Part shown: piece after piece, positions 7,310 through 60,400 of the stretch | Layout: each line of letters begins with the position of its first letter | Numbering within the stretch: position 1 is the first letter of the stretch | DNA from: Apostichopus japonicus | Lineage: Eukaryota; Echinodermata; Holothuroidea; Aspidochirotida; Stichopodidae | DNA: 64,000 bases | Assembly (NCBI RefSeq): GCF_037975245.1 | Contig: NC_092561.1 | Location: forward strand, 2,902,501-2,966,500 | Reading direction: 5' to 3' | Notes under the pieces: generated by a model | Seen by the model: only the letters and a program-made list of their open reading frames with translations | What the model was told of the DNA's origin: nothing | Databases searched by the model: none | Program-made: the position numbers and the translations under genes

Positions 7310-7630
7310 ATGGCAGGTATGACTAAGGAACACAGGGACGCATTAGATAAGACTTTGGTGTGTTTGACGAATTACTTGGGGGTCGATGAGTCTTTAGTTT
7401 ACCTACAAAGCGAAGGAATTCTTACGGAAAACGACGTGGAAGAAATTGAAAAACCAACTACTACGAGAGAAAAGAAAGTTACAGAACTTGTAAAACGCAT
7501 CAAACGGAAAGGGGATAACTCGTACTTGACGCTCAAGAAATTCTTGGAAGAAACTCCAGGATCTGAACATATCGCTAAAGAACTGGACAAAAATTTGAAG
7601 GAAGTCGAAGAAACACTGGCAAATGTGACG
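7310..7630 (+). other. CARD-encoding first coding exon
   Basis: This 107-codon exon encodes a death-fold domain of the CARD type. The helical pattern and the phrase GILTENDVEEIEKPTTTREK match the H2-H4 region of CARDs (GVLTxxxxEEI followed by a T-x-x-x-K/R helix start), then LVKRIKRKGDNSYLTLKKFL matches H4-H5. It ends with a GTAAAT donor at 7631. Family identification is by pattern; DED or death domain are less likely because of the helix 3-4 phrasing. An upstream non-coding exon is possible, since a pyrimidine-rich AG precedes the start codon near 7282. Confidence 0.85.
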
Positions 7631-10600
7631 GTAAATATTTTAAATGAGATCATTGTTAACCAAAACTGAAAGTCAATTATTCTGCAATGACATGAAAGGC
7701 ACTGTAGCCTACTGATACAACAACTTTTGAGAGATACTTTAAACACATGTGCAGCGGAGAAGAGGGAGGCTCAGGGGCGCGTGGCCCCTTTTCTGTTATT
7801 GACTGGAAAGTTCGCCCTTTTTTGTATAATCTAGTGGTGCTGATGTACCTTTCTGGTTTCGATGATAATCGTAACCTTTTGCATTCATGACGACGTGTGC
7901 GTTTGTGTGTGCGTTCGTGACGTTCAGCTTGTAAACACAATATTTGAAGAAGGGAAGGTCGGACCAATTTCATATTTGATGTGTAGAAGTAATACAAGCT
8001 ATTGTTTTTGTGGAGGTAAAGGGTCATTTGGGATTACAAGGGGTCAAATTGTGTAAACCTTGTAAACACGATATATATCAAGAAGAGAAGCTTGGGCAGA
8101 ACTCGTATTTGATGTGTAGTAGTAACACATTCAGTACAAGAAGCCTATTGTTTTAAGTGGAGTTCAAAGGTCATTTGTGGTCATCAGATGTCAAATTGTG
8201 AAAACCTTGTAAACATGATGTCTCAATATTAGAAGCTTGGGCAAATCTCAAACTTTGTAGGAAGGTGTATAACAATGAGTACAAGAAGCCTATTTTGTTG
8301 TGGAGGTCAAGGTCATTTGGGGTCACCAGGGGTCAAATTGTGATAACCTTGTAAACACGATATTTCAAGAAGGTAAGCTTGGGCAGATCTCATATTTAAT
8401 ATGTATATGAACTACATTGAGGTCAAAGGTCATTTGAATTCAACAACCGCCAAACATGTACTTGACTCCCCTCTTACTTGTCTCTCAACACTAACGCACC
8501 TTCTTAAACATACAGTAATATCCGAAGGGAAGCTTGGACAGATCGCATATTTAGTATGTAATTGTATCACATTGAGTACAAGAAGACTAATGTTGTGGGC
8601 GGATGCAATATTCATTTGAGTTCACCAGGGGTCAAATTGTGAAAACCATGTTTTACACAATATTTCAACAAGAACAAATGTCATATTTAGTATGTTGATG
8701 TATTACATTTAGTACAAGAATCCGGTTATTGAGGTCAATGGTCATTTCAGGACAGCCTGTGTCATTGTGAATTTATTGTTTGTCACATCACACTGCTTTT
8801 CACTGTATTACTAAGGTCAGGTATGTTGTACACCTACACTATACATTACGTCATAAACCTGCTCATGTCACATCATCAAAACCAATGCATTTTTGCATTC
8901 TGTTTTTTTATGAAACGTAAATTGTTGTTTTCAAACTTAAAATCCCTATGTTGACGTCTTTTAGTTATCGTGTATAACGTCACGCCAGTATTTGAAGAAA
9001 CATTCAAACACTAGAACACAATTAATGCAAATAGTTCATCTTGTCAGTTTTGACGTAATTTGATTTCCTCCTGCCCTGTCTTTGGCAGATCCCCTAACCC
9101 TCGATGTTTCTATCCCTAGCTCCGGACTTATTCTTACCTCTTCCAGTGATTGTAGTACCGTTAGCAATACTACTAGTTTTACTTCCCACTTTCAGAAACC
9201 GTTTACCATAAATCTATCACAATCTCCCGCTTGTCTTTATATCTAAATTGATGCAGGTCAGTTCGTTCAAAAGTTGTTGAAAATGTTGCAATGTTGGACT
9301 GAGTATAGATAATATGATAAGATACCAGAAAAAGAGAAAACGGAAAACTTATGACACGCGCACTGGCAAGTATGATGAATAGGTTTAGCGCACGGAAGGA
9401 ATGTTTGGGATGCGACTACAAGTCCTATGCAAAGTTGCAAATATTTCAGCGTAAACACAAACCAAAAACCACTGCTGGATTTATGACAGAAAATGAGCAA
9501 GTAATGGACCCATCAAATATAAATATTCAAGCACAACAAATGCTCGTTAGCTTCTGACGAAGGTTGCATCCACAATAGAGCATAAAATATCAAATAAAGT
9601 ACCAGCTTAAGGCACGAAAATTTGGTAGTGAAAGGTTTTCACGGTTGGTTAAATAGTAACATGTAAATTCGTACATATTGGCAAGACATAAAGAACACCA
9701 ATGTAGGTCAAATGATGGAACTGATAACACAGCTTTACATTAATAGACTCTTACCGAAGCATACATAAATGAGACCTTCCCTAGAACGGATGTAAAACAT
9801 ATTGTCTTTAATGTCGAAGCAGTGGCAGACTATAGCACATTTGCATCTACGCACCCTTCATTTATACAAAGTATATTATACGGGAGAGAGTACACTTTCC
9901 ATTAAACCCTTCTCAGGCTGGGCGACAATCATATTAAATTCGCCGTTGCTTTAACCAATGGTTCCGCCCCTAAGGTGCAACCTTTACCGTGACATGAAAA
10001 GTTTTCAATACATAGGTTAACTAAACATTAACTCTCTGAATTTAAAATGGGGACACAAGTTTCGCTTTTCCCCCTCACCACGAAAGCTGATTACGCGCTA
10101 TAAAGAACAACTATTGTTATGGGAAGGCGTTACCTATTGAATAAAGTTATAAAAAGATTATATTAATGACAGTTATTGTACTGGAAAAAATCTTGAAAGA
10201 ACCTGAAATAAAGCAGTTGTCTTATTTACATCACATATAACTAGATTAATAAACCTAACGTCGTCCATTCAATTGTACTTGTGGTTTCCTTTAGAATTCG
10301 ACCTATGATGAAAGCATGAGAGATTCATTAGAGAAAGTAAGAAGTTATATCTATCATAATTTATTCAATGTTTCTTTATTGCAGCAAGAAAGAGAGAAAG
10401 CAAGAGAAACAGGAAAATGGAAAAAACTTGAAGAGAAATTCCACCTTCCAAGTTTTCCCTGTGAGCATGACAGAATCCATCAATATCAAGGTATCTCTAG
10501 AGATATCAATGTACTTTTGATCGGCCAATGTGGAGCTGGAAAGAGCGCCACTGGCAACACTCTCCTCGGAAAAGACATCTTTGAAGAAAGTGACACCGAT

Positions 10601-13600
10601 GCACCGGAAACAAAGTCAGTAAAGTTTGAGACTATCCAGGAGGGTACATTTAATATAACGGTAGTCGACACACCCGGGATTCAAAATGAGGAATTATTAC
10701 TTAATGTTGTAGAAAAGATGATTGATTTTGAAGGAGGCATCCATCTTTTTCTCTTGATTTGCGAAGAGAAGGCAGATCAAGAAATCATTAAGGTGATTTC
10801 GGTTAGTATTGAAGTCTTTATGCATAAACTTTTTTAATCTTTTGCCTGTGACCTAGCTTTATGTCGCTTATAATTCCCATGCTAAAAAAAATCAATGTCT
10901 AAAAAATGACAAAAGGATGATAATTGATGAATCGTATATGTCGTCAACCCGATAATTGTACAATTCTTTTGCCTTTTGCAGAGCAGTATAGAGTGTATAA
11001 CGGTCATCATAAGATCACGAACGTTTGTGTTTTCAGTTGACACATTGGTTATTGATAAGGTTGTTGTTCCTGACATTGTTTGCCAGGGCAGAATATTAAC
11101 TTGTGATTACTGTAGTACAGTAAAAAGCTACGTCAGAGTGATTTTATTCTACCAATCCTGAATGGGAAATATGTCTCGTGATACCACGTGACCGTTAAAA
11201 TGTTCGATGAGAGAAAGATGTAATGTCTTTGATAATTCTGCAAACCAAAAACTACGTCAATGTTTATGTATCATATTTTACACAATGTTTTTGTACTTGT
11301 GAAAATCTAGAAATCTTCGGACATATCCCTTATTATATTTGTTTGTCCATCAAACAGTTTCCAGTATCCCATAACCCATTCTCCTAAATAAAAGCTTCAT
11401 GGATGCTGACACCGCAACATAACCAATCGAATCAACCGTTGTTACTTTCTAATACCGTTGAGGTTTGAATTGTTACTTTAAGTTGAAAATAAAACTGATC
11501 ATTTCAAACGTCAAAATTATGAGATAACACATCATACCTTAGCGGTAAAATATGAAATTTGTGACTAAAATATACTTAGAATATGGAATATTTGACATAA
11601 AGTTGATGATTTAAATGAGCGTTAAAATTTCGTGGTGGGATGTAGACAGTAAGAATGTTAAGATAAATCACAACACTAAATCATTAATTTCCGACACTGC
11701 GATATAGCTTGTCGAAGTACCGATTTATAACTTCAACAATCTGAAATAAAACGTCAAAATATTGAATAAAATATCATAAAAAGTCATACAAAAGTGTAAG
11801 GTGGAGTGCACTTCGAATAAAAATATTGTGAAAACGTTAAAATTCCGATATGAAACGTCACAAGTCCTAGATGAAACGATTAGCGGAGCATTTACAACAA
11901 CAACAAAAAACAACTTCTGTCATACGGCCCTAACTGCTGAGCTTATCACCTTCTTGAAAGCTTGTGCTGGGTCACTTCTATTTCTGATTGATGCGTGTGT
12001 TTATAACTAGATACTGGAAATACAATACAGCACTATACAATGCAAGGGCGTAGGAACCGGGGGGGCTGGGGGGCGCCAGCCCCCCCAGTGAAAAATGTGG
12101 AGGGGCGGAAGTATCATTCCGCCCCCCCACTTCGCAAGTCAAAAAACCCCTTTTTCATTTCCAAATGAGAAAAAAATCTCATTTGGAGCACCAAATTGCA
12201 TCTAAGGCCAGGTGAAAATACAAAATTTAGTTTACAAAATGGAGTGGGTGTTGAAGTGTGCTATATTGCACCAAATTGCATCTGAGGCCACCTGCAAATG
12301 CAAAAAAATCCAAAAGGGGAGGGGACACCCCCTCCCCTTAGACCCCTCCCCCAGGCCGGCCATCAGTCTTCAGCCCCCCCACTCAAAAGTAACTTCCTAC
12401 GCCACTGATACAATGTGTACAACATGTCCAGTGTGGTAGACTGAGGACAATATGCCAAGAAGTAGCAAGTAGAAACGCTCAATATGCAAATGTTTTGCTT
12501 ATGAACCACTGGTGGATGTTGATCTGAGATCGCAGAAATTATATGATTAGACCTCATATTTAAAATCTTGAGTGCTGAAATTGCAGAAAGTACCCTCGTA
12601 CACATGTTTGTACATGTACGCAGAGAGTACCAATTCCTTTCCGACACACCGGGCGACTACCACTCTACTTCAGTCTGGGTGGATCATCGCCCCTGATATT
12701 AGAAGTGTACAACAATTGCTTGCCCGAGTTCCATGACAAACCTCAAAGATTGTTTTCATAACGGCGTCTATGGCACTCCGGAAAATAATTGTAAGGGCTT
12801 ACACTGCCTACCGTACACCTCTCGTTAGTGACGCATTTGGTTATATGCTGCGCAGTGTACTAAACCATTGACACCAACATGGTACCACATATACAAATAC
12901 ACTGACCAATACCTCATATCGCAGAATAAGAAAATCTGATAAATTAGATGAAGTTAATTCAGAGACTTTGTGTAAGCATTTTTAGAACTGCTTCGGACTA
13001 CACTGCTAAAAGTGAACCTCCATACTTTCTTGCTTAGTTTTAAATGGTCTAGTCACGACCTTCGGTCAAATATGGGAGAGCAGTGGCACAGGATCGACAA
13101 CAGAATTTTAGTTTGTATATACTACATTCGTCCAACTGCACGTTGGAAATCTTAACGATTATCTCACAATTTCTATTACATTCCATATCATTCTTTGATG
13201 TGATGTAATCACTTCTTTCCACCTCTCACACCACTTTTGGCACTGAATTGAATTAAGTGAATTGGTGAGAATGCACTGGTAGTAAAGGGTGGCACAATAA
13301 CATGTGAAGCACTCGGATATAAAGAATTTCAAGTCCTCACACTTGTCAATTCCTATTAAGAAAGAGCCCTTCAACGTATAAATCTTTTCTTTTCTTTAAA
13401 TTATCGATAGGGTATCTGAAAAAAAGTTGATGTTCATGCACACTTATAGACCATTCTTCTTCACAATGTTTTATTTTTAATCAGAGAATACTTGCCGAGA
13501 CTGCCTGTGACCAATGTGTTGTTATATTAACAAATGCACGTGCACGATTCGTTGGTAAAAAAAAGATGATACTGCGAGATTACATCGAACGAGAAAAGGA

Positions 13601-16600
13601 CCGTGGAGAGCCTCTGGCGGATCTCTTCCAGCTAGTCCAACAAAGAGTAATAGCAGTTGAAAATTGCTTTGATGAGGACGACGACACAATGATAGATCAA
13701 CAACGCCAAAAACTTCTCTGTTGTCTTGCTCAGGTGATAAAGGATAACAAAGGGTTGGTTTATTCCAAGAAATCGTTCCAAAATGCCAAGACTAGGATTA
13801 AACAAGATGAGGCTTTGAAGAACATGAAAGGACGTCTGCATGAATATCTTCTCCAGACGTATTTGAAAACGTTATCGCAGCGGCAACTCGACAACATACA
13901 AACTACGCTTAATGACAATGTAAAGGACATCATGCAGGCTTCCCACGTTTTGGATCTTTGCCCAAACATCACTGAAGGAGATGCAATGCAATATATGAGA
14001 TTGTTCATCAAAGAAAACGAAAACGAGATATCCAACGTGAAAAATGAGCTCTGTCAAAAGGTAACGTTATGCCCAGGCCTAGTGATGCAATATATAGATC
14101 GATATATATATTTCCACAGTATTTTTAAGCAGTAATTAGTTAGGTGCTAAGTGAACTCTTTATAATTAATTGCAAATAATGTTCAGCTACTTTTGTTTTT
14201 AAATCCTTTCTTGAGTATTTCTGAAGTAATATTCAAAGATGGATATGCCTACAGCCAAAAGGCAGACTAAACAGGACGCTAGAGGTTTTGGTTGAGTACC
14301 CTGATGTCACCAGTGGCGGAGCGTCCATATAGTCAGGGGGCGAATGCCCCCCCCCCCCTGGCTGCCTCAAATGGACTGTTTCTTTCAGCTTTTTACCACT
14401 TTTTACTTATTCGCGATTATTGACTTTTTTATTGCGCTCTCATCTACCTATTGACATTTGTCACATTTTGTTGGTGTAATTTTCTGTCAAAATGCTCTAA
14501 CGGCTATTTATTCTTCGTTTATCTGCAAATTAGAAAGGCCCGGAAAGGGTCATTTCCGGCGATCTAGGGAGTATCTTTACTCAAAAAATTCTGTACGCTC
14601 CCCGCAAACCTGTGGTGGCGCTCCCCTTAGATAGTGTCGAAAGCGCCCCTAAAGTCCATTCTCGCCCCATCTGACCAATACCCCTAGCTCCGCCACTAGA
14701 TGTCACGCCTGCAATTATTCTTCTCAAAAGTAAAGAAATTCTTCAAACATAGTTAAAGAGAAATCATCGACAAAGTTACAGAGAAAGAGTAAGTCACAGA
14801 ATTGAAAAAAAAAATTAAAAGGGGAGAAAAATGCTTACCGAGTTTTCAAAAAGTAATTAGGAAGTTTCGTAAAGTTTAGCAGCAGAATTATACAAGAATA
14901 TACAGATTGTTGAAGCAGAATGGCAGGGTTTAACGGTATTTGTTATGTTAAGATACATATGTACCTATTTCCTTTCCCTTTTTTTATAATTTGAACATTC
15001 AAGAAAATATAATTGGGTCATTTGGGACCAATGAGGAAAGTATAGAGGATATAGTACTGCAGACTCTTCAATTAAAACGACCAAGGATAACAAGCGTAAT
15101 AAAGATCTGTAGATATTGAGCCAATGGGTGTCAATCACAAAGTTATCAGGTAATTTGTGAAACGTATCCTGTGAAGACACTTAATGGCTGGGGGTCTATA
15201 CTGGTGAGAAGCAAACTCATTAGCTACATCAAAATGATGTTATCAGATGATACAATCCTCTGCGTGCCCTTGGCACTTTTCGAAATTCGGTTGTGGAGAG
15301 AAGGGGTAAACCTTAACATTTAATTTTGTATTCACCTAGATGTATCCTGGGCGTGTTTGTTAGGATTAAAATTATCTCACCTATTATTCGAAGGAAAAAA
15401 GTAGTACGTGAAAGGAATTTGGATTTATTCACACTGACTGATTGATACGTTTCTACAACAATTTTATCGTAGATACAAGCAGAAGAAAAAAGACAGAATG
15501 AAATATGGAAAGCCTTAGAAGAGAAATGTTATTGCTTCAGCTGCATACATGACAACATAGGAAAATACACAGATGTTCCGAAAGAAATTAATATACTTTT
15601 GATTGGAAAAACTGGGTCCGGTAAAAGCGCCACTGGAAACACAATTATCGGGAAAGCTTCCTTCGAAGAAAGTGGCACCAGTAAGTCGGTGACTAAGACA
15701 ATTAGCATGAAAAGCATGAAAGAGGGTGGATTTCAAATTACCGTCATTGACACACCTGGTCTATTTGACACAAACACAGTTATTAAAAATGAAGATACGC
15801 TGCTTGAAATAGCGAAAACGATGATCAATTTTAAGGGAGGAATCCATATATTTCTGCTGGTTTTGAGTTCTTCATCGAGATTCACGAAGGAGGAACAACA
15901 AACTATTAAAGTAATCGAGGTAAGTTTGATCGTCATGAAGTATTTAAGTTTGCAACTTTCAGAAAACCGCTCAGTTTCCTATATACAAATTTCCCAATAC
16001 GTAGTGTCCTATAATAAATGAGTGCTCACTGAGTATATTAAATTATTTGAATATTTTATCTTGCGCCCAACCAGGAATTCCTTGGCAAGAATGTTTTCAG
16101 GAATTGCCTCTTAGTTCTGACCAACGCTCGTTCAAAATTTTGTTCTGAGGAAAAGAGTTCGTTGCAACAGTACGTCGAATCGGAAAGGAAAGAAAGGGGC
16201 CAGTTTTCGGATCTACTTAACCATGTCAGCAATCGAATAATAGCCGTTGAGAATTGCTTTGACGATGACTTTTTGACAAAGAAACATCGTCAAAAACTCC
16301 TTTGTTGTTTAGCTCAAATGATACACGACAACAAAGGGTCTGTGTATTCCAACAAGGCGTTTGGACAAGCCAAGGCAAAAGTCGAGCAACAAGAGGAAGA
16401 ACGAAAGAATAGAGTCGCCAGGGAAAAAGAATTGACCCATATGAAAACCATATTGCGAAAGTTTCTTGTGCATAAGTATATGAATCATTTAACAGAGGAA
16501 GAACTCGACAACATTCATACGAAGGTTAGGAATGAGACACTACACATCATGAAGAATTCTGGGGTGGGGCAGTTAAAATTCATCACAAGGGAAGATGTCA

Positions 16601-18225
16601 AGACATACGCAGAAACCGTAATTCGGGAAAATGAAGTCCTCATTGCAAAGTTAAAAGACATGAGAATTCAAGATGCGATACAACAAAAAGAATACGAAGA
16701 TACTAGAAAGCGGCTAAAAGATGAGGAGGAGATTAATAAAGTGCAAAGCATTGTACTACCTTTGGTAAGTGAGAACTTAAAACAACAGTCAAAACAAGAG
16801 TTAGAACAGATAGTTCAACGCAAGCGTCTGCCTGATGCTTTGACTGATCAAATAATTGCGAATCTTGAATCTAACATTGTGCATGTTGACTTGAAACTAA
16901 CTAAACGTTATATTCAGGAAACAAACTTTGCAAATCCAAAGATAATCCAAGGGTACATTGATGAGAAAGTTTTCATAGAAAAACTTGAAGAAAAGTCGAA
17001 ACAACTGCAAAGGGTCCAAAGAGAACAGAAATTAAACGAAATCATGGAAACTTTAAAAAAAGACCTTAATGAAAACTTGAAAGGTAAGCCTATCAAAGAG
17101 TTAGAGGAACTAATGAATGACTTAAAAGACATAGAACACCCTGTTCTAGGTAATTGGGAATCAATATTGACTGAACTTGTAGGAAGTAAAATCATAGGCT
17201 CTGATATAAGTATCATAGAAATAACCAACTTGTTCTTAAAGCAGAAAAATAATTGGATTCAGAGTACCTTGGGAATCCAGTTAGAAAAAAGGCAACAACA
17301 AATAGAGGCAAAACTTTTGCAGGATAGGGAAGAGTTAAGGAACAGTGCCTTCAGTTTAATTTCAAAAGAAATTAAAGAAAATCTTGAGTCTTACTTAACA
17401 GATAAGACTACCAGCCAATTAGCAGAATTGGAGGAACAGATAGGTAAAAATGAGGTTCCTATAGATGTCTTTGATAAAGTGAATGAAAAGCTTACAAGTG
17501 CACAGCAGCAGTCTTTGAGTACCAAAGAAAAAGAAGATGAAATACTGAAACAAATCAAGGGCCAAAGCAAGGTTATTGAGGAATGTAAGAAGGCGGCTAG
17601 GAGATGCTTTGCGGGTTCCTCTGTAGTTAAAATCAAATATAAAGGCATCGCTAAAATATCTAATGTGAAAGTAAGTGACGAAATTCTAGTTTTTGACGAG
17701 AACGGTCATCTATTCTATGATAAGGTTTATCTCATTTCTCATGCAATAAAAGATGAAAGTATTACATTCATCCGGTTGAAAACATCTTCAGATAAATACC
17801 TACGTATTTCACCAGGTCATTTGTTGCCCGTTGGTAGTCTTGGTAGTAACGTCGCCGCTAAGAACGTGTCCCTTGGTAACGTCATATTTACATTACAAGA
17901 TGGTGTGATGGTGCCTGACAAAGTTACCTCAGTAACTTACGAGCTATGTCGAGGAGCGTATTGTCCAATGACAATGCATGGGACTATTGTTGTCAATGGC
18001 GTAGCAGCATCCTGTTATACAACTTTCTTCCCATCTCCTCTTGCTCACGCTTTGCTTTCTCCCATAAGACTCCTCTTCAGTTATTTACCTCTGCCTCTCT
18101 TTAATCGATTACTTCCATATGATACTGAGGAAGGGATGCCGGTGCTGCTCCTAAAATGCCGTTCGATCGTCATCAGATGGCGTTCATTGTTTACAAGGAA
18201 TGATAACCTAAGCAAAAGCGTATAA
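7310..18225 (+). CDS. CARD - GIMAP - GIMAP - helical repeat - Hint fusion protein
   Basis: Spliced model of about 1317 residues. Exons: 7310-7630, 10295-10336, 10385-10801, 13485-14060, 15473-15919, 16075-18225 (stop TAA). Every junction is phase 0 with GT/AG borders. Order: CARD (1-107), linker (108-121), first AIG1/GIMAP GTPase (about 122-340, P-loop 168-175), helical segment, second AIG1/GIMAP GTPase (about 453-700, P-loop 497-504), about 400 residues of charged helical repeats, and a Hedgehog-type Hint domain from Cys1112 to the end. The ATG at 7310 has a good context (AAGATGG). CARDs recruit partners by homotypic contact and GIMAP GTPases oligomerise on membranes in immune cells, so an innate-immune or cell-death role is inferred, not shown. 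A polyadenylation signal AATAAA lies at 18842. The weakest link is the 2.66-kb first intron joining the CARD exon to the rest. Confidence 0.8.
7925..8765. repeat. Diverged tandem repeat in intron 1, ~140-150-bp unit, about 6 copies
   Basis: Units begin with CTTGTAAACACGATAT-like sequence and continue through AAGCTTGGGCAGATC, a CATATTT..ATGTG segment, AGTACAAGAAGCCTATT, GGTCAAAGGTCATTTG and CAGGGGTCAAATTGTG. Copies start at about 7929, 8060, 8205, 8347, 8505 and 8640 and differ by substitutions and indels, so the array is old. It lies inside the first intron of the CARD/Hint gene. Confidence 0.8.
10385..14060 (+). other. First AIG1/GIMAP module (exons 3-4)
   Basis: Exon 10385-10801 carries the P-loop GQCGAGKSATGN (G1) and VVDTPG (G3), followed by the AIG1 phrase FEGGIHLFLLI. 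Exon 13485-14060 carries the second half: LTNAR in the G4 place, RVIAVEN in the G5 place, then a helical tail with LDNIQTTL. The AIG1/GIMAP family binds GTP and forms membrane-associated oligomers. Compared with the second module, a few residues are missing just before the intron (EEKADQ versus SSSSRFTKEEQQ). The donor at 10802 is GTTAGT. The 48-nt intron 10337-10384 is in frame, so retention would only add 16 residues. The exon start after it matches the start of the paralogous exon at 15473, which supports splicing. Confidence 0.88.
12035..12415. mobile_element. Non-autonomous hAT element (MITE) with 8-bp TSD
   Basis: The element spans 12043-12407 (365 bp). The left end CAAGGGCGTAGGAA and the inverted right end CAGTGGCGTAGGAA form terminal inverted repeats of the hAT type. 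An exact 8-bp target-site duplication, ATACAATG, lies at 12035-12042 and 12408-12415. The interior is rich in G and C homopolymer runs and contains two CACCAAATTGCATCT copies; no transposase is present. It sits in the intron between the two exons of the first GIMAP module. Confidence 0.88.
14303..14706. mobile_element. Second non-autonomous hAT element with 8-bp TSD
   Basis: The element spans 14311-14698 (388 bp). The left end CAGTGGCGGAGC and the inverted right end TAGTGGCGGAGC are terminal inverted repeats. The exact 8-bp duplication GATGTCAC lies at 14303-14310 and 14699-14706. The interior has no open frame of note and carries a C-rich run at about 14347-14358. It lies in the intron between the two GIMAP modules. 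Confidence 0.88.
15473..16420 (+). other. Second AIG1/GIMAP module
   Basis: Exon 15473-15919 carries GKTGSGKSATGN (G1), VIDTPGLFDT (G3) and FKGGIHIFLLVL. The next exon from 16075 continues with LVLTNARSKF (G4 place) and RIIAVENCFDDD (G5 place). The exon borders fall at the same places and phases as in the first module, so the two modules arose by internal duplication of an exon pair. The G4 place reads LTNAR in both modules, lacking the Asp of the usual TKxD or TRxD. Confidence 0.9.
16420..17604 (+). other. Charged helical repeat region
   Basis: About 390 residues rich in Glu, Lys, Gln and Leu, predicted helical or coiled coil from composition. A degenerate motif of the form hydrophobic-x2-hydrophobic-Leu, then about ten residues later x-S/K-x-x-E-Leu-x-x-hydrophobic, recurs about every 80-90 residues. 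Examples are EEELDNIHTKV, KQELEQIVQRK, IKELEELMNDL and SQLAELEEQI. The first of these is also present at the tail of the first GIMAP module (RQLDNIQTTL). No known domain name is assigned. Confidence 0.7.
17605..18225 (+). other. Hedgehog-type Hint (Hog) autoprocessing domain
   Basis: 206 residues starting at Cys1112. It opens with CFAGSSVVKI, matching the CFxGS start of Hedgehog C-terminal domains. SDEILVFDENGHLFYD follows at the spacing seen in Hedgehog. SPGH places His72 and Ser69 where Hedgehog has its catalytic Thr-x-x-His. The end reads GTIVVNGVAASCY and then LAHALLSPIRLL, closely matching the last strand and downstream helix of Hog domains. About 65 residues follow, comparable in length to the sterol-recognition tail. 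Hint domains cleave the peptide bond before Cys1 through a thioester. Position 46 is His, not the Asp needed for cholesterol activation in Hedgehog. The residue before Cys1 is Arg rather than Gly. Confidence 0.9.
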
Positions 18226-51400: not shown

Positions 51401-54400
51401 CTGCAACAGTGTCAAAAAGGTTTCCCATATTTTGCTAATAAATTATTTTCTTAGTTTCAAAGTTTGCCATTATTCATTTTCAAGATATCAATTCTCAATA
51501 TAGAAACATTTTCAAGTTTGCAAATGTGTCTCATCATCTGTGCTCGCTAGCTTGTGTTTGTCTTTCAAAACCTTACCGAAAGTGATCGCCTGCTTTCTTT
51601 CAGGTCTGTCATACCAATCCATCTGAACGAGGGCGCTTCATCAGGTGCATCTACAACCTACTGCAGTCGTCCAGCGCTGCGGTCCGCTACGAAGCAGCCG
51701 GTACTCTCATCACACTGTCTAGCGCCCCCACAGCTGTGAAGGTAAAGTGTAGTGTATCCGACGTCTGCGAGTATTGTAGTTCAGATAGTTGTGTAACTCT
51801 CACTCTCACTTCATTAGTATCATGTGATAAGGAAACTTGCAATCATATTTTATCTTCTTGTTTTTCCGTCTCTTTCGTTCAAAGGCTGCTGCATCTTGCT
51901 ACATCGACCTCATCATCAAGGAGAGTGACAATAATGTCAAGCTTATCGTTCTGGACAGACTCATCGCTCTCAGAGAGGATCCCAGACATGAGAAAGTCTT
52001 GCAGGTCTGTATCATTCTTGTTCTGTTAATAATTCATCTTTTTCTTCTGTTTTTGGTACAAATTAACAAACTGAGGAGAGCTGTCGGTTTATAATGTTCA
52101 TCACAGGGAGAACAGAGGAAGTTAAGAACCTTTATAGAAAGAAAAAAAAAATCAATTTTTGGATCAAAGTATTTATGAACCTGTAAATGAAGTCATTTCA
52201 ATACTTCCCCATTTCTCACAGGAAACCTTCATGATAGATTTTTCTGTCCTTTAATCTTTAGTAAATTTTGATGTGATTTTCCCCGCTTGTTTTTTAGGAT
52301 CTGCTGATGGATATTCTGCGAGTCCTGTCTGCTCCAGACATCGAGGTCAGACGTAAGACTCTGGAGTTAGCTTTGGACCTTGTCACCTCAAGGAATGTAG
52401 GAGAGGTGAGCCTACCGTCAAGTTAAAGTGAAGCCTTAACCACACCTTCTCATTGCAAATGTACAATCATGAAACAGAAGGACATGATTTATCTGTTATC
52501 ATAAAGTGAAATACTACAATTTGTTGTAAATTTGATAAGTATTATATCAGTTTGGTGCAAAACCACAACATTTTCAGTATTTTAGGATGAGCAGTACAAA
52601 ATTAAAAAAATAAACAATATTTATGTGTTGAGCTGCTGTGCCTTTATTGTCACAATATGGCATGTGCCATGTCATTGTGTATCCCTTTGAAATTTGATTC
52701 AACATTCAAGTGAGAGTATGTAAACATTTTAGTTTAAAGATAAGCTTTAGCTTAGTTTAAGTTGTAGGTACCATGATGATTAGCTTGCTATCATCACATT
52801 GCTATTATAGCAGAAACATAACACTGAATTGGAAGTCATAGATTGTTGGTCAATAAGATGGATTTGTTGCACAGCTTAAAATAATTGTTCTAAGCTTGAG
52901 AAAGTTATTTTTCTAACCATTTTCTGTTTTTTTCTTTTTCCAGATGGTACTGGTTTTAAAGAAAGAAGTCAGTAAGACAGAGAGTGTGAGTGAGCATGAG
53001 GACACTGGGAAGTACAGACAGGTGAGAAAAATCATGAAAATAAACAAAATATAATAATATAAAATGAACCCAAATCAAAATATGACTGCTGGTATCATTT
53101 AAGAGGATTTGAAGTCACTTTGACGGGGTTTTTTGTTTATCCTTTGTTTTTTGGGTATTTTCCATCTTGGTATGGAAAGGATCAGCATTGTGCCACTTGT
53201 TCTTGACCTATGCCCCTCTCTAGCTATTTAAAATCCATACAATGTCATGAATATGCATATATTTCAGAATCACTTTTATACTAGAGAATGAATCGTAAAA
53301 TAAACTATAACCGGTCCCGTTAGATGGTGATTGCTGTTTTTTTTTGCCGTTTGATATTCATGACCTTTAACACATGTATCTTTCTTTTTACTTCTGGTTC
53401 GCAGCTTCTCGTGCGAACCCTTCATTCCTGCAGTGTCAAATTCCCAGATGTGGCAGCTCAAGTCATCCCACTGGTAGGGTCGCAAGTTTTCTTTTGATAA
53501 CTTTAAAAATTAATAATTTCATCAGTTATCATTGTGGTTGACTAAATTGAGCATTGTAACATCTAAATACCTCCCTGTTACAAGAGATCTTCTTTCAAGG
53601 ATTAAAGTGTCCCTACCACCCCTAACGCTGTTCCCTATGACTAAATTATCATCCTTATTAATATCTCCTCACAGCTGATGGAGTTCCTGAGTGACACTAA
53701 TGAACTCGCAGCTGCTGATGTTCTGGTCTTCGTCCGAGAGGCCATCCAGAGATTTGAGCAGTTGAAGCCTCTGATCATCTCCAAACTGCTGGAGGTCTTT
53801 CCTGCCATTAAGTCCATGGAGTGAGTCATCCTGTCACCCTCCCTATCTGTCAAGATTAATTGTCAGAAATTTCTAACAAGACTGCAAACTTTAGTCAAGC
53901 TTGAAACTTTGTTACAGTTTTGTAGTTTTAGATGCTTTAGATGAAGTGTTTTGATATATTGCAAACAAAAGTAATTTTCCATGTTTACACTGAGATGATG
54001 ATGTGGTCCCATTGAAATGCATTTGGTGGCTGGCTGTTATGATGTAACATGTGGGAGTGTGAAAGGTATAATAATATTAATAATAAAGATACTTATTAAT
54101 ATAGTGCATTATACAAGAAACAAAATGAGTACAAATATACAGCAGGTATGCACAGGTGATGTGCTGGTCAGTGTTGACCAAATCAACTAATGGTCTTTAC
54201 ATACTGGTGCCTTCTGGGCATTAATGTAATTAGTAGCAAGGTTTGAAAAGTTACAGCAGTTACCTCCCTTGGGCATTCTGGCCCCCAACCCCCCCACCCC
54301 TCTCCCCACCCCTATTTTGTAGGTGTCTTCCTGTATTTATCCAGTATAAGTTATTGTACTGTACCCAGAAACGAATCATTTGCACACCTGATGTGATCAT

Positions 54401-57400: not shown

Positions 57401-60400
57401 ATTAATATCTCATACCCATTTCAAGTAAAAGAATATGAAGCTGCTCTGGCCAGAATCAAATCTCATTGGGTGAGTGAGGAGCAGGCCCTGAGAGGTGGAA
57501 GTCCTTGTGGAGATAGGAGTTGGCCTGGGAGAGAGGGCCCAGGGGGAGAAGGCCTTGGTGAAAATGAGTAGGCCCTAGGGGGTGGAAGGCCTTTGGGAGA
57601 TAGGAGTTGGCCTGGGTAGAGTGCCCAGGGAGAAGGGGGAGGTCTTGGTGAAAGAGGAGCAGGCCCTGGGGGGTGGAAGGCCTCAGGGAGATTGGAGTTG
57701 GCCTGGTGGAGAGGGCCCAGGGGGAAGGGGGAGGAAGCCTTGGTGAAAGAGGAGCAGGCCCTGGGGAATGGAAGGCCCTGGGGAGGTAGGAGTTGGCCTG
57801 GGGGAGAGGCCCAGGGGGAGAAGGCCTTGGTGAAAAATGAGCAGGCCCTGGGGGGTGGAAGGTCTTAGGGAGGTACTAGTTGGCCTGGGGGAGAGTCCTC
57901 AGCGGGAAGGGGAGAAGAAGCCTTTTGGGAGAGAGGATCATGCTCGGGGAAAAAGGCCTTAGGGAGGGAAATGGGCAGATCCAGGGAGAAAGACCTTTGG
58001 GAGAGAGACATCTTGTTTGCTGTGTCTTCTCATTTGTCAGTGTGGATTAGTGCAGTAACATGAAACAGTCAAGTACCGCTGATATGTGTGTGACTGGTCT
58101 GCATCCCTATCAAATAACCTGTGTAGAATGTAGCTATGCATTGCTGGACAAATTACCCTTTAACCTCCAAACACCTCTAACAAGCTTCACTAGGCTTTTG
58201 TAGAATCTGCAATTATGTATAATATACACACGTAGGTCTGTGTTCTGTGTTGATTTATTAAACTAATTGACTGTAATTAACATAATGTCCTAGTCTTTCT
58301 AGACTTTAATGTTTGATGAAATTGTTTTACAGGTGACCCAGTTGACTGGTTTCTCAGATCCGGTGTATGCTGAAGCCTACATCAACATCAACCAGTATGA
58401 CATTGTCCTGGATGTGTTGATTGTAAACCAAACATCAGATGTACTTCAGAACTGTTCCTTGGAGTTAGCGACCTTAGGTGAGAGTTCAATCAACACGTAT
58501 TGAATAAATTTAAAACCTTTTTTCATCTAAAACAATAAAATTGAGCAGTATCAACTTCTGTTTATGTTCATCAGGGAGTTTCTTTACAAATGTGGGCAAG
58601 AAATCTTGCTTAGTCGAGTTGATACATTCAGATAGGAAACAGTCAGAAGTATATCTCTTAAATAAGAGGTTTAGTGGTATATAGATAATGTTCCTTGGAG
58701 TTAGCGACCTTAGGTGAGAGTTCAATCAAAATGTATTGAATAAATTAAAAACCTTTTTTCATCTAATACAATAGAATTGAGCAGTATCAACTTCTGTTTA
58801 TGTTCCCCAGGAAGTTCCTTAACAAATGTGGGCAAGAAATCTTGCTTAGTTTAGTTGATACATTCAGATATGAAACAGTCAGAAGTATAGCTCTTTAATA
58901 AGAGGTTTGCTGGTATATAGATAATGTTACAAAGGAGTGAGGCAATTGAAACCACTAAACTGCATCTTGGTTAAGAGATGGTTGAATCAAATCATTTTCT
59001 ACTATGCAGTATGCACCAGTAATCATTGACATTCATGGCATGTATTTTAAACATATCTTATTACCAGTTTGATTTTCTTATATTTTATTGTTTGTTTATT
59101 GTTGTTTGTTTTTTGTTGCTTGTTTTTGTGTTGTTTTTTGTTATTGTTTAAGGAAGATTGTTGATTGTTGAATCGTTGTTTATTTCCCTTTGTTTATTTA
59201 GGTGATCTAAAGTTGGTTGAGAAACCACAGCCAATGACCCTAGCAGCTCATGACTTCTGTAACATCAAGGCAAACATTAAAGTGGCCTCTACTGAGAATG
59301 GAATCATCTTCGGCAACATTGGTAGGTCAAGAAAAGTGACCAGAAGTGGTTGAAGACTGACTGGTTAAATTAATGTCAGCGAATCAACTAGTAGTGTGTG
59401 TAGACAGACCCGTTAAATTAATGTCAGCAAGATCATACTTTATGAATACAGTCTGTGCTCTAGGGCACTGGATGGACAGTTCACTGTGGAGAAGAGGCTG
59501 TACAGCTGTAGACATGAAGGAATATCAGTCATCATGGAGTTGAAGTCAGGGCACTAGCAAGCAACGACTCCCATTGATGGACAATGGACAAGATTCCTAA
59601 CAAACTTTAAGAGTTCCAAGGCAGTCACAGGAATGGATTTCAGGGAGCCAATAGTTTCCTTCTAAATACTTCCTTCTCATTGTCATTATAGAACTTAAGT
59701 AGTCTGACGGTAACATGAATTGTATAATTGAATCCTACCCTTAGGATATAGGAAAATGGTTTTATGCAGACATTTAAAAATTGTTACCAAGGCATTTCCT
59801 TTGTTTACTCAGAAAGAGGAATGATGGCTTCAACGTTTGTCCAATATATCTATGTCTGCTTGTTCAATCCACAGTTTACGATGTTTCCGGGGCAGTGAGT
59901 GATCGTAACGTGGTGGTACTCAATGACATACACATAGATATAATGGACTATATCGTACCAGCTGTCTGTACTGACGCAGAGTTCCGAACAATGTGGGCAG
60001 AGTTTGAGTGGGAGAACAAGGTAAAACATTGCTCGGTCAAAGTTCATTGTGGGACAGCTTTTTGGTGTCCATGTCTAGATTTTAGATGAATCTAGACAGT
60101 TTCTCTGTGGTTATGGTACCTTGAAGTAATAATTAGCATGAGAAGACTACAGTAATGTGTACAGGCACATCGGTTTCATTTTAGATGGCTTTTGTGAAGT
60201 TTTTTGCCCATGTGATTATCATCAGATGATACTTATTCAGTTGCATTATTGCATAAAATGTCTGCATCGTCTTTCTGCCATTTTGTTATATCTATCTGTT
60301 TATTGTCAATAATTTCTCTGTCTATTCCCATTGTTCTACAGGTGACTGTCAACACAAACATTGGAGATTTAAGAGAATACTTGAAGCATCTGTTGGGTTG

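What the first reader, a model, noticed from the sequence alone, without database searches (positions are those of the whole stretch)
7310..18225. CARD - GIMAP - GIMAP - helical repeat - Hedgehog-type Hint in one gene
Seen: six phase-0 exons in one direction encode a CARD, two AIG1/GIMAP GTPase modules and a Hint domain that starts with CF and keeps the catalytic His. The two GIMAP modules and the Hint are tied firmly because the second module, the helical region and the Hint are in a single exon (16075-18225). Known: CARDs nucleate signalling assemblies, GIMAPs are immune GTPases, Hint domains self-cleave. I know of no described protein with this combination. Inference: GTP-driven oligomerisation could be coupled to self-cleavage or lipid attachment at Cys1112. 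This would be functionally analogous to the autoproteolytic FIIND/ZU5-UPA modules of NLRP1, CARD8 and PIDD1 but chemically different.
Basis: partly seen in the sequence, partly recalled or inferred. Interest (0 to 1): 0.95.

Follow-up and report, generated by a model that had tools for sequence, protein, structure and literature searches.

The report
Immune GTPase with hedgehog self-cleaving tail
An echinoderm, probably a sea cucumber, carries a cluster of immune-type genes that end in the self-cutting, sterol-attaching module of Hedgehog with its key acid changed to histidine; the domain combination is already known from lancelets, but this chemistry inside a cell-death protein is untested.

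Summary
A five-exon, all phase-0 gene (7310-18225) encodes 1,303 residues: CARD, two AIG1/GIMAP modules, a helical region and a Hedgehog-type Hint starting at Cys1098 (not 1112). It is one of eight GIMAP-Hint loci found in this genome; seven are clustered on one contig, four are two-module genes, one is broken. Dual genes arose by fusion of tandem CARD-GIMAP genes: a decayed CARD lies between the modules in three of four. The mitochondrial contig uses the echinoderm code. The architecture is not new: CARD+AIG1+HINT is published for lancelets (2025), AIG1+Hint for coral, snail and a fungus. What I did not find in print is the Hint chemistry. All eight copies carry His where Hedgehog has the catalytic Asp (D46/D303), which this genome's own Hedgehog keeps. 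The laboratory D46H mutant is reported active with a wider sterol range. Cys1, block-B His and the SCY Cys are kept, and the Hint is the most constrained part. SRR helix 1 is recognisable; the HWY motif and Gly-1 are not. Best reading: self-cleavage leaves a lipid-ester-anchored CARD-GIMAP scaffold. The GTPases lack a G4 motif, and the FIIND analogy is weak. No transcript or biochemistry was available.

The parts
7310..7630 (+). Exon 1: start ATG and CARD (residues 1-107)
   Evidence: PF00619 at residues 10-92; donor GTAAAT, in register in 7 of 8 GIMAP-Hint loci
10385..10801 (+). Exon 2: GTPase module 1, first half (P-loop GQCGAGKS, DTPG)
   Evidence: PF04548; acceptor/donor
13485..14060 (+). 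Exon 3: GTPase module 1, second half plus about 80-residue helical tail; degenerate G4 (TNAR)
   Evidence: tail homologous to that of module 2 (hhalign 99.1%)
14236..14935 (+). Decayed CARD of the second ancestral gene inside the intron between module 1 and module 2, in pieces
   Evidence: tblastn with paralogous CARDs (best 2.4e-11; pieces at intron offsets 176-251 and 624-875), no hit in 4 control introns
15473..15919 (+). Exon 4: GTPase module 2, first half (GKTGSGKS, DTPG)
   Evidence: PF04548, best AIG1 match of the genome search
16075..16428 (+). Exon 5, part 1: GTPase module 2, second half; degenerate G4 (TNARS)
16429..17604 (+). Exon 5, part 2: all-helical region (392 residues), no Pfam family over cut-off; most divergent part among paralogues
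   Evidence: (pLDDT 83)
17605..18018 (+). Exon 5, part 3: Hedgehog-type Hint; C1 17605-17607, H46 17740-17742, S69 17809-17811, H72 17818-17820, C137 18013-18015
   Evidence: PF01079; alignment to Hh structures; paralogues
18019..18222 (+). Exon 5, part 4: SRR-like tail; LAHxxxSPxR helix-1 motif (H148 18046-18048, R155 18067-18069), HWY motif absent; stop 18223-18225
   Evidence: tail and 3' part of the Hint nearly identical to the paralogue at C1:2.87 Mb

Best explanation
The gene belongs to a young tandem family of echinoderm, probably sea-cucumber, immune-type scaffolds: CARD, one or two GIMAP modules, a long helical arm and a C-terminal Hog (Hint plus partial sterol-recognition) module. 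Most likely working: the intracellular precursor assembles through its GIMAP and helical parts; the Hint carries out an N-to-S acyl shift at Cys1098, and a membrane lipid alcohol, most likely a sterol, activated by His46 in place of Hedgehog's Asp46, resolves the thioester. The Hint leaves and the CARD-GIMAP-helical part keeps a C-terminal lipid ester that holds it on membranes, where clustering of the N-terminal CARD recruits CARD partners such as caspases. Shown: gene structure by sequence and paralogues, domains, gene family, fusion origin, residue identities, relative constraint. Inferred: cleavage (about 0.75), a lipid rather than water as acceptor (about 0.4), membrane anchoring and CARD signalling.
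For: Domains and exons. Eight GIMAP-Hint loci, each with a CARD upstream on the same strand, one of them (C1:2.83 Mb) with broken exons. Of the 9 Hint matches of the genome search, the 8 GIMAP-linked copies have His at position 46 and the one Hedgehog has Asp. C1, H72 and C137 kept in 8 of 8. D46H in Drosophila Hint keeps structure, pKa and cholesterol activity and gains >200- and >300-fold on coprostanol and epicoprostanol (PMC9163320; wider range also in PMC8529194; passages); its structure 6tyy is among the matches. Constraint: pooled pN/pS 0.39 (bootstrap 0.28-0.55) for Hint+tail against 0.77 (0.65-0.90) for the helical part, 6 cluster copies. SRR helix 1: H148 and R155 align with SHH H374 and R381, which simulations tie to cholesterol recruitment and lipid head groups (PMC7906309, passages). 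The published AIG1-Hog protein GmGIN1 also lacks a signal peptide (PMC2362128, section 9).
Against: No transcript, protein or activity data. The residue before Cys1 is not Gly (R, R, T, E, E, R, K, K). The HWY motif of the SRR is absent and block-B Thr is Ser. 119 of 196 Hint+tail columns are invariant among 7 copies, so invariance of a few catalytic sites within the family is weak evidence by itself; gene conversion in the cluster adds to this. The match of the N-terminal half of the Hint, with position 46, to SHH is weak on its own (i-Evalue 0.85); Drosophila Hh and the own Hedgehog carry that alignment. Hedgehog processing is reported in the ER, while this protein starts with a CARD. The AlphaFold2 model of the Hint was too poor to check the active site (pLDDT 40). 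In one of 4 dual genes the exon-3 donor is lost.
Confidence: 0.45

Rival explanations
1. Hydrolytic self-cleavage only: the Hint cuts itself off (water or thiol resolves the thioester), as a maturation or release step, and no lipid is attached.
For: Only half of the SRR is recognisable: HWY motif absent, Gly-1 absent. For C. elegans Hog proteins it is unclear whether cholesterol is added, and the region is called 'adduct recognition region' (PMC2362128, passage).
Against: The SRR-like helix-1 motif LAHxxxSPxR is invariant at H148, P153 and R155 in 8 of 8 copies, and pairwise omega of the tail is 0.26-0.63 (20 of 21 pairs; the other has no changes). A bare cleavage would not need it.
Confidence: 0.3
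2. A non-catalytic relic: the Hint is kept as a folded protein-protein or lipid-binding domain and no longer cleaves.
For: General base changed, Thr69 is Ser, no Gly-1.
Against: C1, H72 and C137 all kept in 8 of 8 although identity to two Hedgehogs is only about 28-32%; Asp-to-His at this very site is reported active; pN/pS 0.39.
Confidence: 0.2
3. Two neighbouring genes: CARD-GIMAP module 1 ends in its own read-through stop at 14133, and module 2-Hint is a separate or dead gene.
For: In the paralogue at C1:2.87 Mb the exon-3 donor reads AT, not GT, so joining is doubtful there. Exon 3 could read to a stop at 14133.
Against: Exon-3 donor GT kept in 3 of 4 dual genes and exon-4 acceptor AG in 4 of 4; the CARD in front of module 2 is decayed in 3 of 4 and not found in the fourth, and the borders are phase 0.
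Confidence: 0.12

Closest known systems
Lancelet CARD + AIG1 + HINT proteins (PMC12373286, PLoS Genet 2025; passages read)
   Same: N-terminal CARD, AIG1 (also two or three in a row), C-terminal HINT; expanding, rapidly evolving family
   Different: Here in a genome with the echinoderm mitochondrial code, so not 'unique to amphioxus among animals'; the passages I saw do not discuss Hint active-site residues; orthology not testable here
GmGIN1 of the fungus Glomus mosseae (PMC2362128, section 9 read; original paper not read)
   Same: AIG1-like GTPase followed by a bona-fide Hog domain, no signal peptide
   Different: Fungal; no CARD or second GTPase mentioned there
Coral AIG1 + Hint (PMC3723955) and Biomphalaria AIG1 + Hint and DD-CARD + AIG1 genes (PMC7053062), passages read
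   Same: Same domain pairs; the snail genes also include dual AIG1 and tandem arrays
   Different: The passages report the pairs, not the full CARD-AIG1-AIG1-Hint set; the coral paper infers 'protein splicing', which a Hog module is not known to do (recalled)
Hedgehog (SHH, Drosophila Hh) C-terminal autoprocessing domain; D303H/D46H mutant, PDB 6TYY
   Same: Hint with C1, block-B His, SCY Cys and SRR helix 1; the natural sequence carries the same His as the mutant
   Different: No Hedge domain, no Gly-1, no HWY motif, CARD at the N-terminus instead of a secreted ligand
FIIND/ZU5-UPA of NLRP1, CARD8, PIDD1 (recalled)
   Same: Autoproteolysis in a death-fold protein
   Different: Other fold and chemistry; here the CARD stays on the N-terminal product

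Membership tests
CARD | Pfam CARD profile over curated cut-off | tested here: met
   PF00619 41.7 bits against 23.9, residues 10-92
GIMAP/AIG1 GTPase | AIG1 profile, G1 (GxxxxGKS) and G3 (DTPG) | tested here: met
   243 bits for the window protein; G1 and DTPG in 11 of 11 modules of the 7 Hint loci other than the broken one
GIMAP/AIG1 GTPase | G4 (N/T)KxD guanine-recognition motif (motif recalled) | tested here: not met
   TNAR, TYAR, TYAH or SNAR instead; 0 of 11 modules keep it
Hedgehog-type Hint | PF01079 over cut-off; Cys1; block-B His; SCY Cys | tested here: met
   97.3 bits; C1, H72, C137 in 8 of 8
Hedgehog-type Hint | Catalytic Asp46/Asp303 | tested here: not met
   His in 8 of 8 GIMAP-Hints; Asp in this genome's Hedgehog
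Hedgehog-type Hint | Block-B Thr (TxxH) | tested here: not met
   Ser in 8 of 8 (SPGH or SQGH); a conservative change
Hedgehog protein | Signal peptide and N-terminal Hedge domain; Gly before Cys1 | tested here: not met
   CARD begins at residue 10 and no Hedge match at E up to 1 (no signal-peptide predictor was run); residue -1 is R/T/E/K
Sterol recognition region (SRR) | Helix 1 with WAHxxFAPxR-like motif | tested here: met
   LAHALLSPIR aligned to Dm and SHH SRR
Sterol recognition region (SRR) | HWY motif and second helix | tested here: not met
   No HWY; a second helix (180-198) is predicted only in a poor model
Autoprocessing enzyme | Cleavage at Cys1 and adduct | not testable with these tools
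   Needs protein
Lancelet CARD-AIG1-HINT family | Same domain order | tested here: met
   against the description in PMC12373286
Lancelet CARD-AIG1-HINT family | Orthology by tree | not testable with these tools
   No lancelet sequences were at hand
FIIND/ZU5-UPA autoproteolytic proteins | FIIND or ZU5/UPA domain | tested here: not met
   Not among the 17 Pfam matches of the 1,303-aa protein at E up to 1

The most novel reading that the evidence does not exclude
A natural general-base swap: the GIMAP-linked Hint uses His46, as in the laboratory D46H Hedgehog mutant, to ester-link an intracellular CARD-GIMAP immune scaffold to sterols other than cholesterol (for example bent 5-beta or 3-alpha sterols, or altered sterols of infected membranes), so that the sterol is at once trigger and membrane anchor of a death-fold signalling platform.
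Probability: 0.15. Interest if true: 0.88.

Novelty: new variant of a known kind. Interest (0 to 1): 0.55.

Why it matters
The CARD-GIMAP-Hint combination has been reported as a domain list, but I found no mechanism for it in the listings. The Hint here carries, in all eight copies, the residue that biochemists introduced and found to widen Hedgehog's sterol range, next to a recognisable sterol-recognition helix and in a protein that starts with a death-fold adaptor. That makes a concrete test possible: does an immune GTPase lipidate itself with a sterol? It also puts GIMAPs, and this architecture, in an echinoderm, where AIG1 loci were reported absent from Strongylocentrotus (PMC3723955, PMC7053062), and it shows how two-module GIMAPs can be made by fusing tandem genes.

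Tried and rejected
Sixth exon: phase-0 candidates in three introns were listed and none was compelling; five exons give the full frame. Helical 'repeats': not decided. Sequence support is weak, the predicted model is periodic. Fold of the helical region: model good (pLDDT 83), but Foldseek gave 0 of 81 matches at E<=0.001, and the second-look aligner's best Z was 7.0 (3kmi_A, rmsd 5.7, 144 aligned), under the level of about 13 that its note gives for helical models, so no fold is claimed; spectrin-repeat chains appear among the rows and are not excluded. AlphaFold2 of the Hint: too poor (pLDDT 40). Relatives in viral contigs: 41 pattern hits, 0 confirmed; genome contigs was not scanned. GTP-driven switch as main mechanism: weakened by loss of G4. 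FIIND-like release of a CARD: rejected on domain order. Recent capture of this genome's own Hedgehog tail: not supported, since the window Hint is about as far from it (54 of 195 identical) as from Drosophila Hh (51 of 158), while the two Hedgehogs share 59 of 156. Uniqueness of His46: not claimed. I recall, without any call, that nematode Hog proteins also have His there. Of the papers listed (2 of 2; 20 of 396; 12 of 22; 8 of 8; 10 of 31) I read passages of PMC9163320, PMC8529194, PMC7906309 and PMC2362128; in these the His at this place comes up only as the laboratory mutant.

Paper listings for the architecture: 3 of 3; 15 of 24; 15 of 19; 3 of 3; 15 of 54; unlisted papers were not seen. 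PMC8195603 was looked at for GIMAP, AIG1, HINT and sea cucumber: no such protein in the passages.

Dropped before counts: the broken locus at C1:2.83 Mb (p283) was left out of the GTPase, dN/dS and helical counts (its Hint is in the 8 of 8); the locus at C1:1.19 Mb (p119, no Hint found) was left out of all Hint counts; the helical and dN/dS sets hold 7 of 8 Hint loci, the bootstrap 6 of 8 (p121 reported apart). p121's last frame runs on to 289 codons from Cys1, so its 3' end is uncertain.
Full report
Observation. The exon chain 7310-7630, 10385-10801, 13485-14060, 15473-15919, 16075-18225 is phase 0 at every border and translates to 1,303 residues. Pfam-A finds CARD at 10-92, AIG1 twice and Hint at 1096-1255, each family over its curated cut-off. 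I count five exons, and Cys1 of the Hint is residue 1098, not 1112.

Family. A search of the whole genome (671.6 Mb, 35 contigs) with the Hint profile gives 9 matches from 9 candidates: one Hedgehog gene on C4 and eight on C1, seven of them between 2.67 and 2.92 Mb and one at 1.21 Mb. All eight are preceded by AIG1 exons and, further upstream on the same strand, by a CARD. Four are dual-GIMAP genes with the window's exon plan, three are single, and one (2.83 Mb) is broken (stops in its CARD and AIG1 matches). CARD donors are in register in 7 of 8. The paralogue at 2.80 Mb gives an intact 1,301-residue protein from the same five exons. This makes an assembly artefact or chance exon string very unlikely.

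Origin of the two-module form. The intron between modules 1 and 2 holds a decayed CARD in 3 of 4 dual genes (best E 2.4e-11 in the window, 1.4e-23 and 8e-33 in two others), closest to the CARDs of the single-module genes; the fourth gave no CARD hit but keeps neighbouring sequence (blastn 85%). None of 4 control introns gave a hit at E 0.05. Dual genes are therefore best read as fusions of two tandem CARD-GIMAP genes; the first has lost its Hint and the second its CARD. In one dual gene (2.87 Mb) the exon-3 donor now reads AT, so that copy may not be joined.

Organism. Contig C35 (16.1 kb) is mitochondrial. Its first 9 kb was translated with five codes; of these COX1 gives the motif STNHKDIG only with the echinoderm code, where AAA is Asn; cox1, nad4L, cox2, atp6, cox3, nad3, nad4, nad5 and cob follow in that order (gene names from the translations, by eye). 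I take it for an echinoderm, and from recall of COX1 and gene order probably a sea cucumber; the species was not determined. AIG1 loci were reported absent from Strongylocentrotus (PMC3723955; PMC7053062; passages).

The Hint. Aligned to Drosophila Hh and SHH, the window Hint keeps Cys1, the block-B His (H72) and the SCY Cys (C137), has Ser for the block-B Thr, and carries His at position 46 where Drosophila Hh has D303 (= D46) and SHH D243 (the SHH match of that half is weak, i-Evalue 0.85). The same residues stand in 8 of 8 GIMAP-Hints. The genome's own Hedgehog has Asp there, in an alignment without gaps from Cys1 past position 46. Reviews state that D303 is the general base and that D303H (D46H, PDB 6TYY) keeps fold (0.4 A), pKa and cholesterol activity and gains more than 200- and 300-fold on coprostanol and epicoprostanol (PMC9163320; PMC8529194; passages; the original paper by Zhao et al. 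2019 was not read). So the family carries naturally what was made in the laboratory as a 'general base swap'. I do not claim it is unique: I recall His there in nematode Hog proteins, untested.

The tail. After SCY comes LAHALLSPIRLL, aligned with SHH WAHRAFAPFRL; H148 and R155 correspond to SHH H374 and R381, which simulations link to cholesterol recruitment and lipid head groups (PMC7906309, passages). The HWY motif present in the own Hedgehog is missing, and the residue before Cys1 is R, R, T, E, E, R, K, K instead of Gly. The adduct may thus differ from cholesterol, or be absent.

Selection. Among six cluster copies (15 pairs) pooled pN/pS is 0.39 (bootstrap 0.28-0.55) for Hint plus tail, 0.77 (0.65-0.90) for the helical region and 0.87 (0.61-1.36) for the second GTPase half; against the distant copy at 1.21 Mb the values are 0.33, 0.56 and 0.41. 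Pairs are not independent, and the last 58 codons compared are identical between the window and the 2.87-Mb copy, so gene conversion contributes. Still, the Hint is the slow part and the arms are the fast part, as expected of a conserved processing module on a changing sensor or scaffold (inference). Because 119 of 196 Hint+tail columns are invariant in 7 copies, identity of catalytic residues within the family is weak evidence; their retention at about 30% identity to Hedgehogs is the better argument.

GTPase modules. G1 and DTPG are kept in 11 of 11 modules, G4 in 0 of 11, and module 1 lacks 7 and 5 residues present in module 2 after DTPG. Nucleotide binding is likely, guanine specificity doubtful, and module 1 may be inactive (inference).

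Helical region. 392 residues, no Pfam family over cut-off. AlphaFold2 on 7 paralogues gives pLDDT 83, all helices, with long helices of 50, 40 and 51 residues spaced about 95-110 residues apart and short helices between them. No fold match can be claimed.

Mechanism. Cleavage at Cys1 would free a 206-residue Hint and leave CARD-GIMAP-GIMAP-helical with a modified C-terminus. This is Hedgehog's logic, not FIIND's, since the CARD is not on the released piece. GIMAPs are known as membrane-associated scaffolds (recalled), so a self-installed C-terminal lipid would replace their usual anchor. I put cleavage at about 0.75, a lipid adduct at about 0.4, and the explanation as a whole at 0.45.

Novelty. 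The architecture is in print: CARD+AIG1+HINT in lancelets, called unique to amphioxus among animals (PMC12373286, passages); AIG1+Hint in coral (PMC3723955) and snail (PMC7053062); AIG1-Hog GmGIN1 in a fungus (PMC2362128, section 9). I found no echinoderm case and no comment on the Hint active site of these proteins in the listings or the passages read. Hence: new variant of a known kind.

Noticed in passing
G000:C4:14545427-14546062 (L008): This genome's own Hedgehog Hint reads STY where Drosophila Hh and SHH have SCY: the Cys143-equivalent is Thr, while Asp46 and HWY are kept.
   Followed up: no
window about 17870-18222 against the C1:2.87 Mb paralogue: The last roughly 350 coding bases are nearly identical (88/90, 88/90, 90/90, 69/69, 12/12) between two paralogues that elsewhere in this exon are about 68-91% identical per 90-base step: a likely gene-conversion tract over the 3' part of the Hint and its tail.
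   Followed up: partly
G000:C3:15312015-15312293 (L015): A lone CARD, 92% identical to the CARD of the 2.87-Mb gene, on another contig with no GIMAP exons found in the 9.9 kb fetched: a dispersed duplicate.
   Followed up: partly
G000:C1:1194811-1205285 (L012, L007): A CARD-GIMAP locus without detectable Hint, its second GTPase half in pieces nearly 8 kb apart, apparently split by inserted repeat sequence.
   Followed up: partly
window 51586-52029: Open frame matching the adaptin N-terminal region (PF01602, 31.8 bits, under the cut-off of 37), read by eye as coatomer-beta-like: an ordinary neighbour gene.
   Followed up: no
window 57477-57924: Tandem array (period 182, 2.5 copies) whose minus strand keeps two frames open with Pro-rich repeats; probably not coding.
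   Followed up: no
G000:C29:14745-31219: Five COX1 matches on a second contig, suggesting mitochondrial copies or concatemers in the assembly.
   Followed up: no
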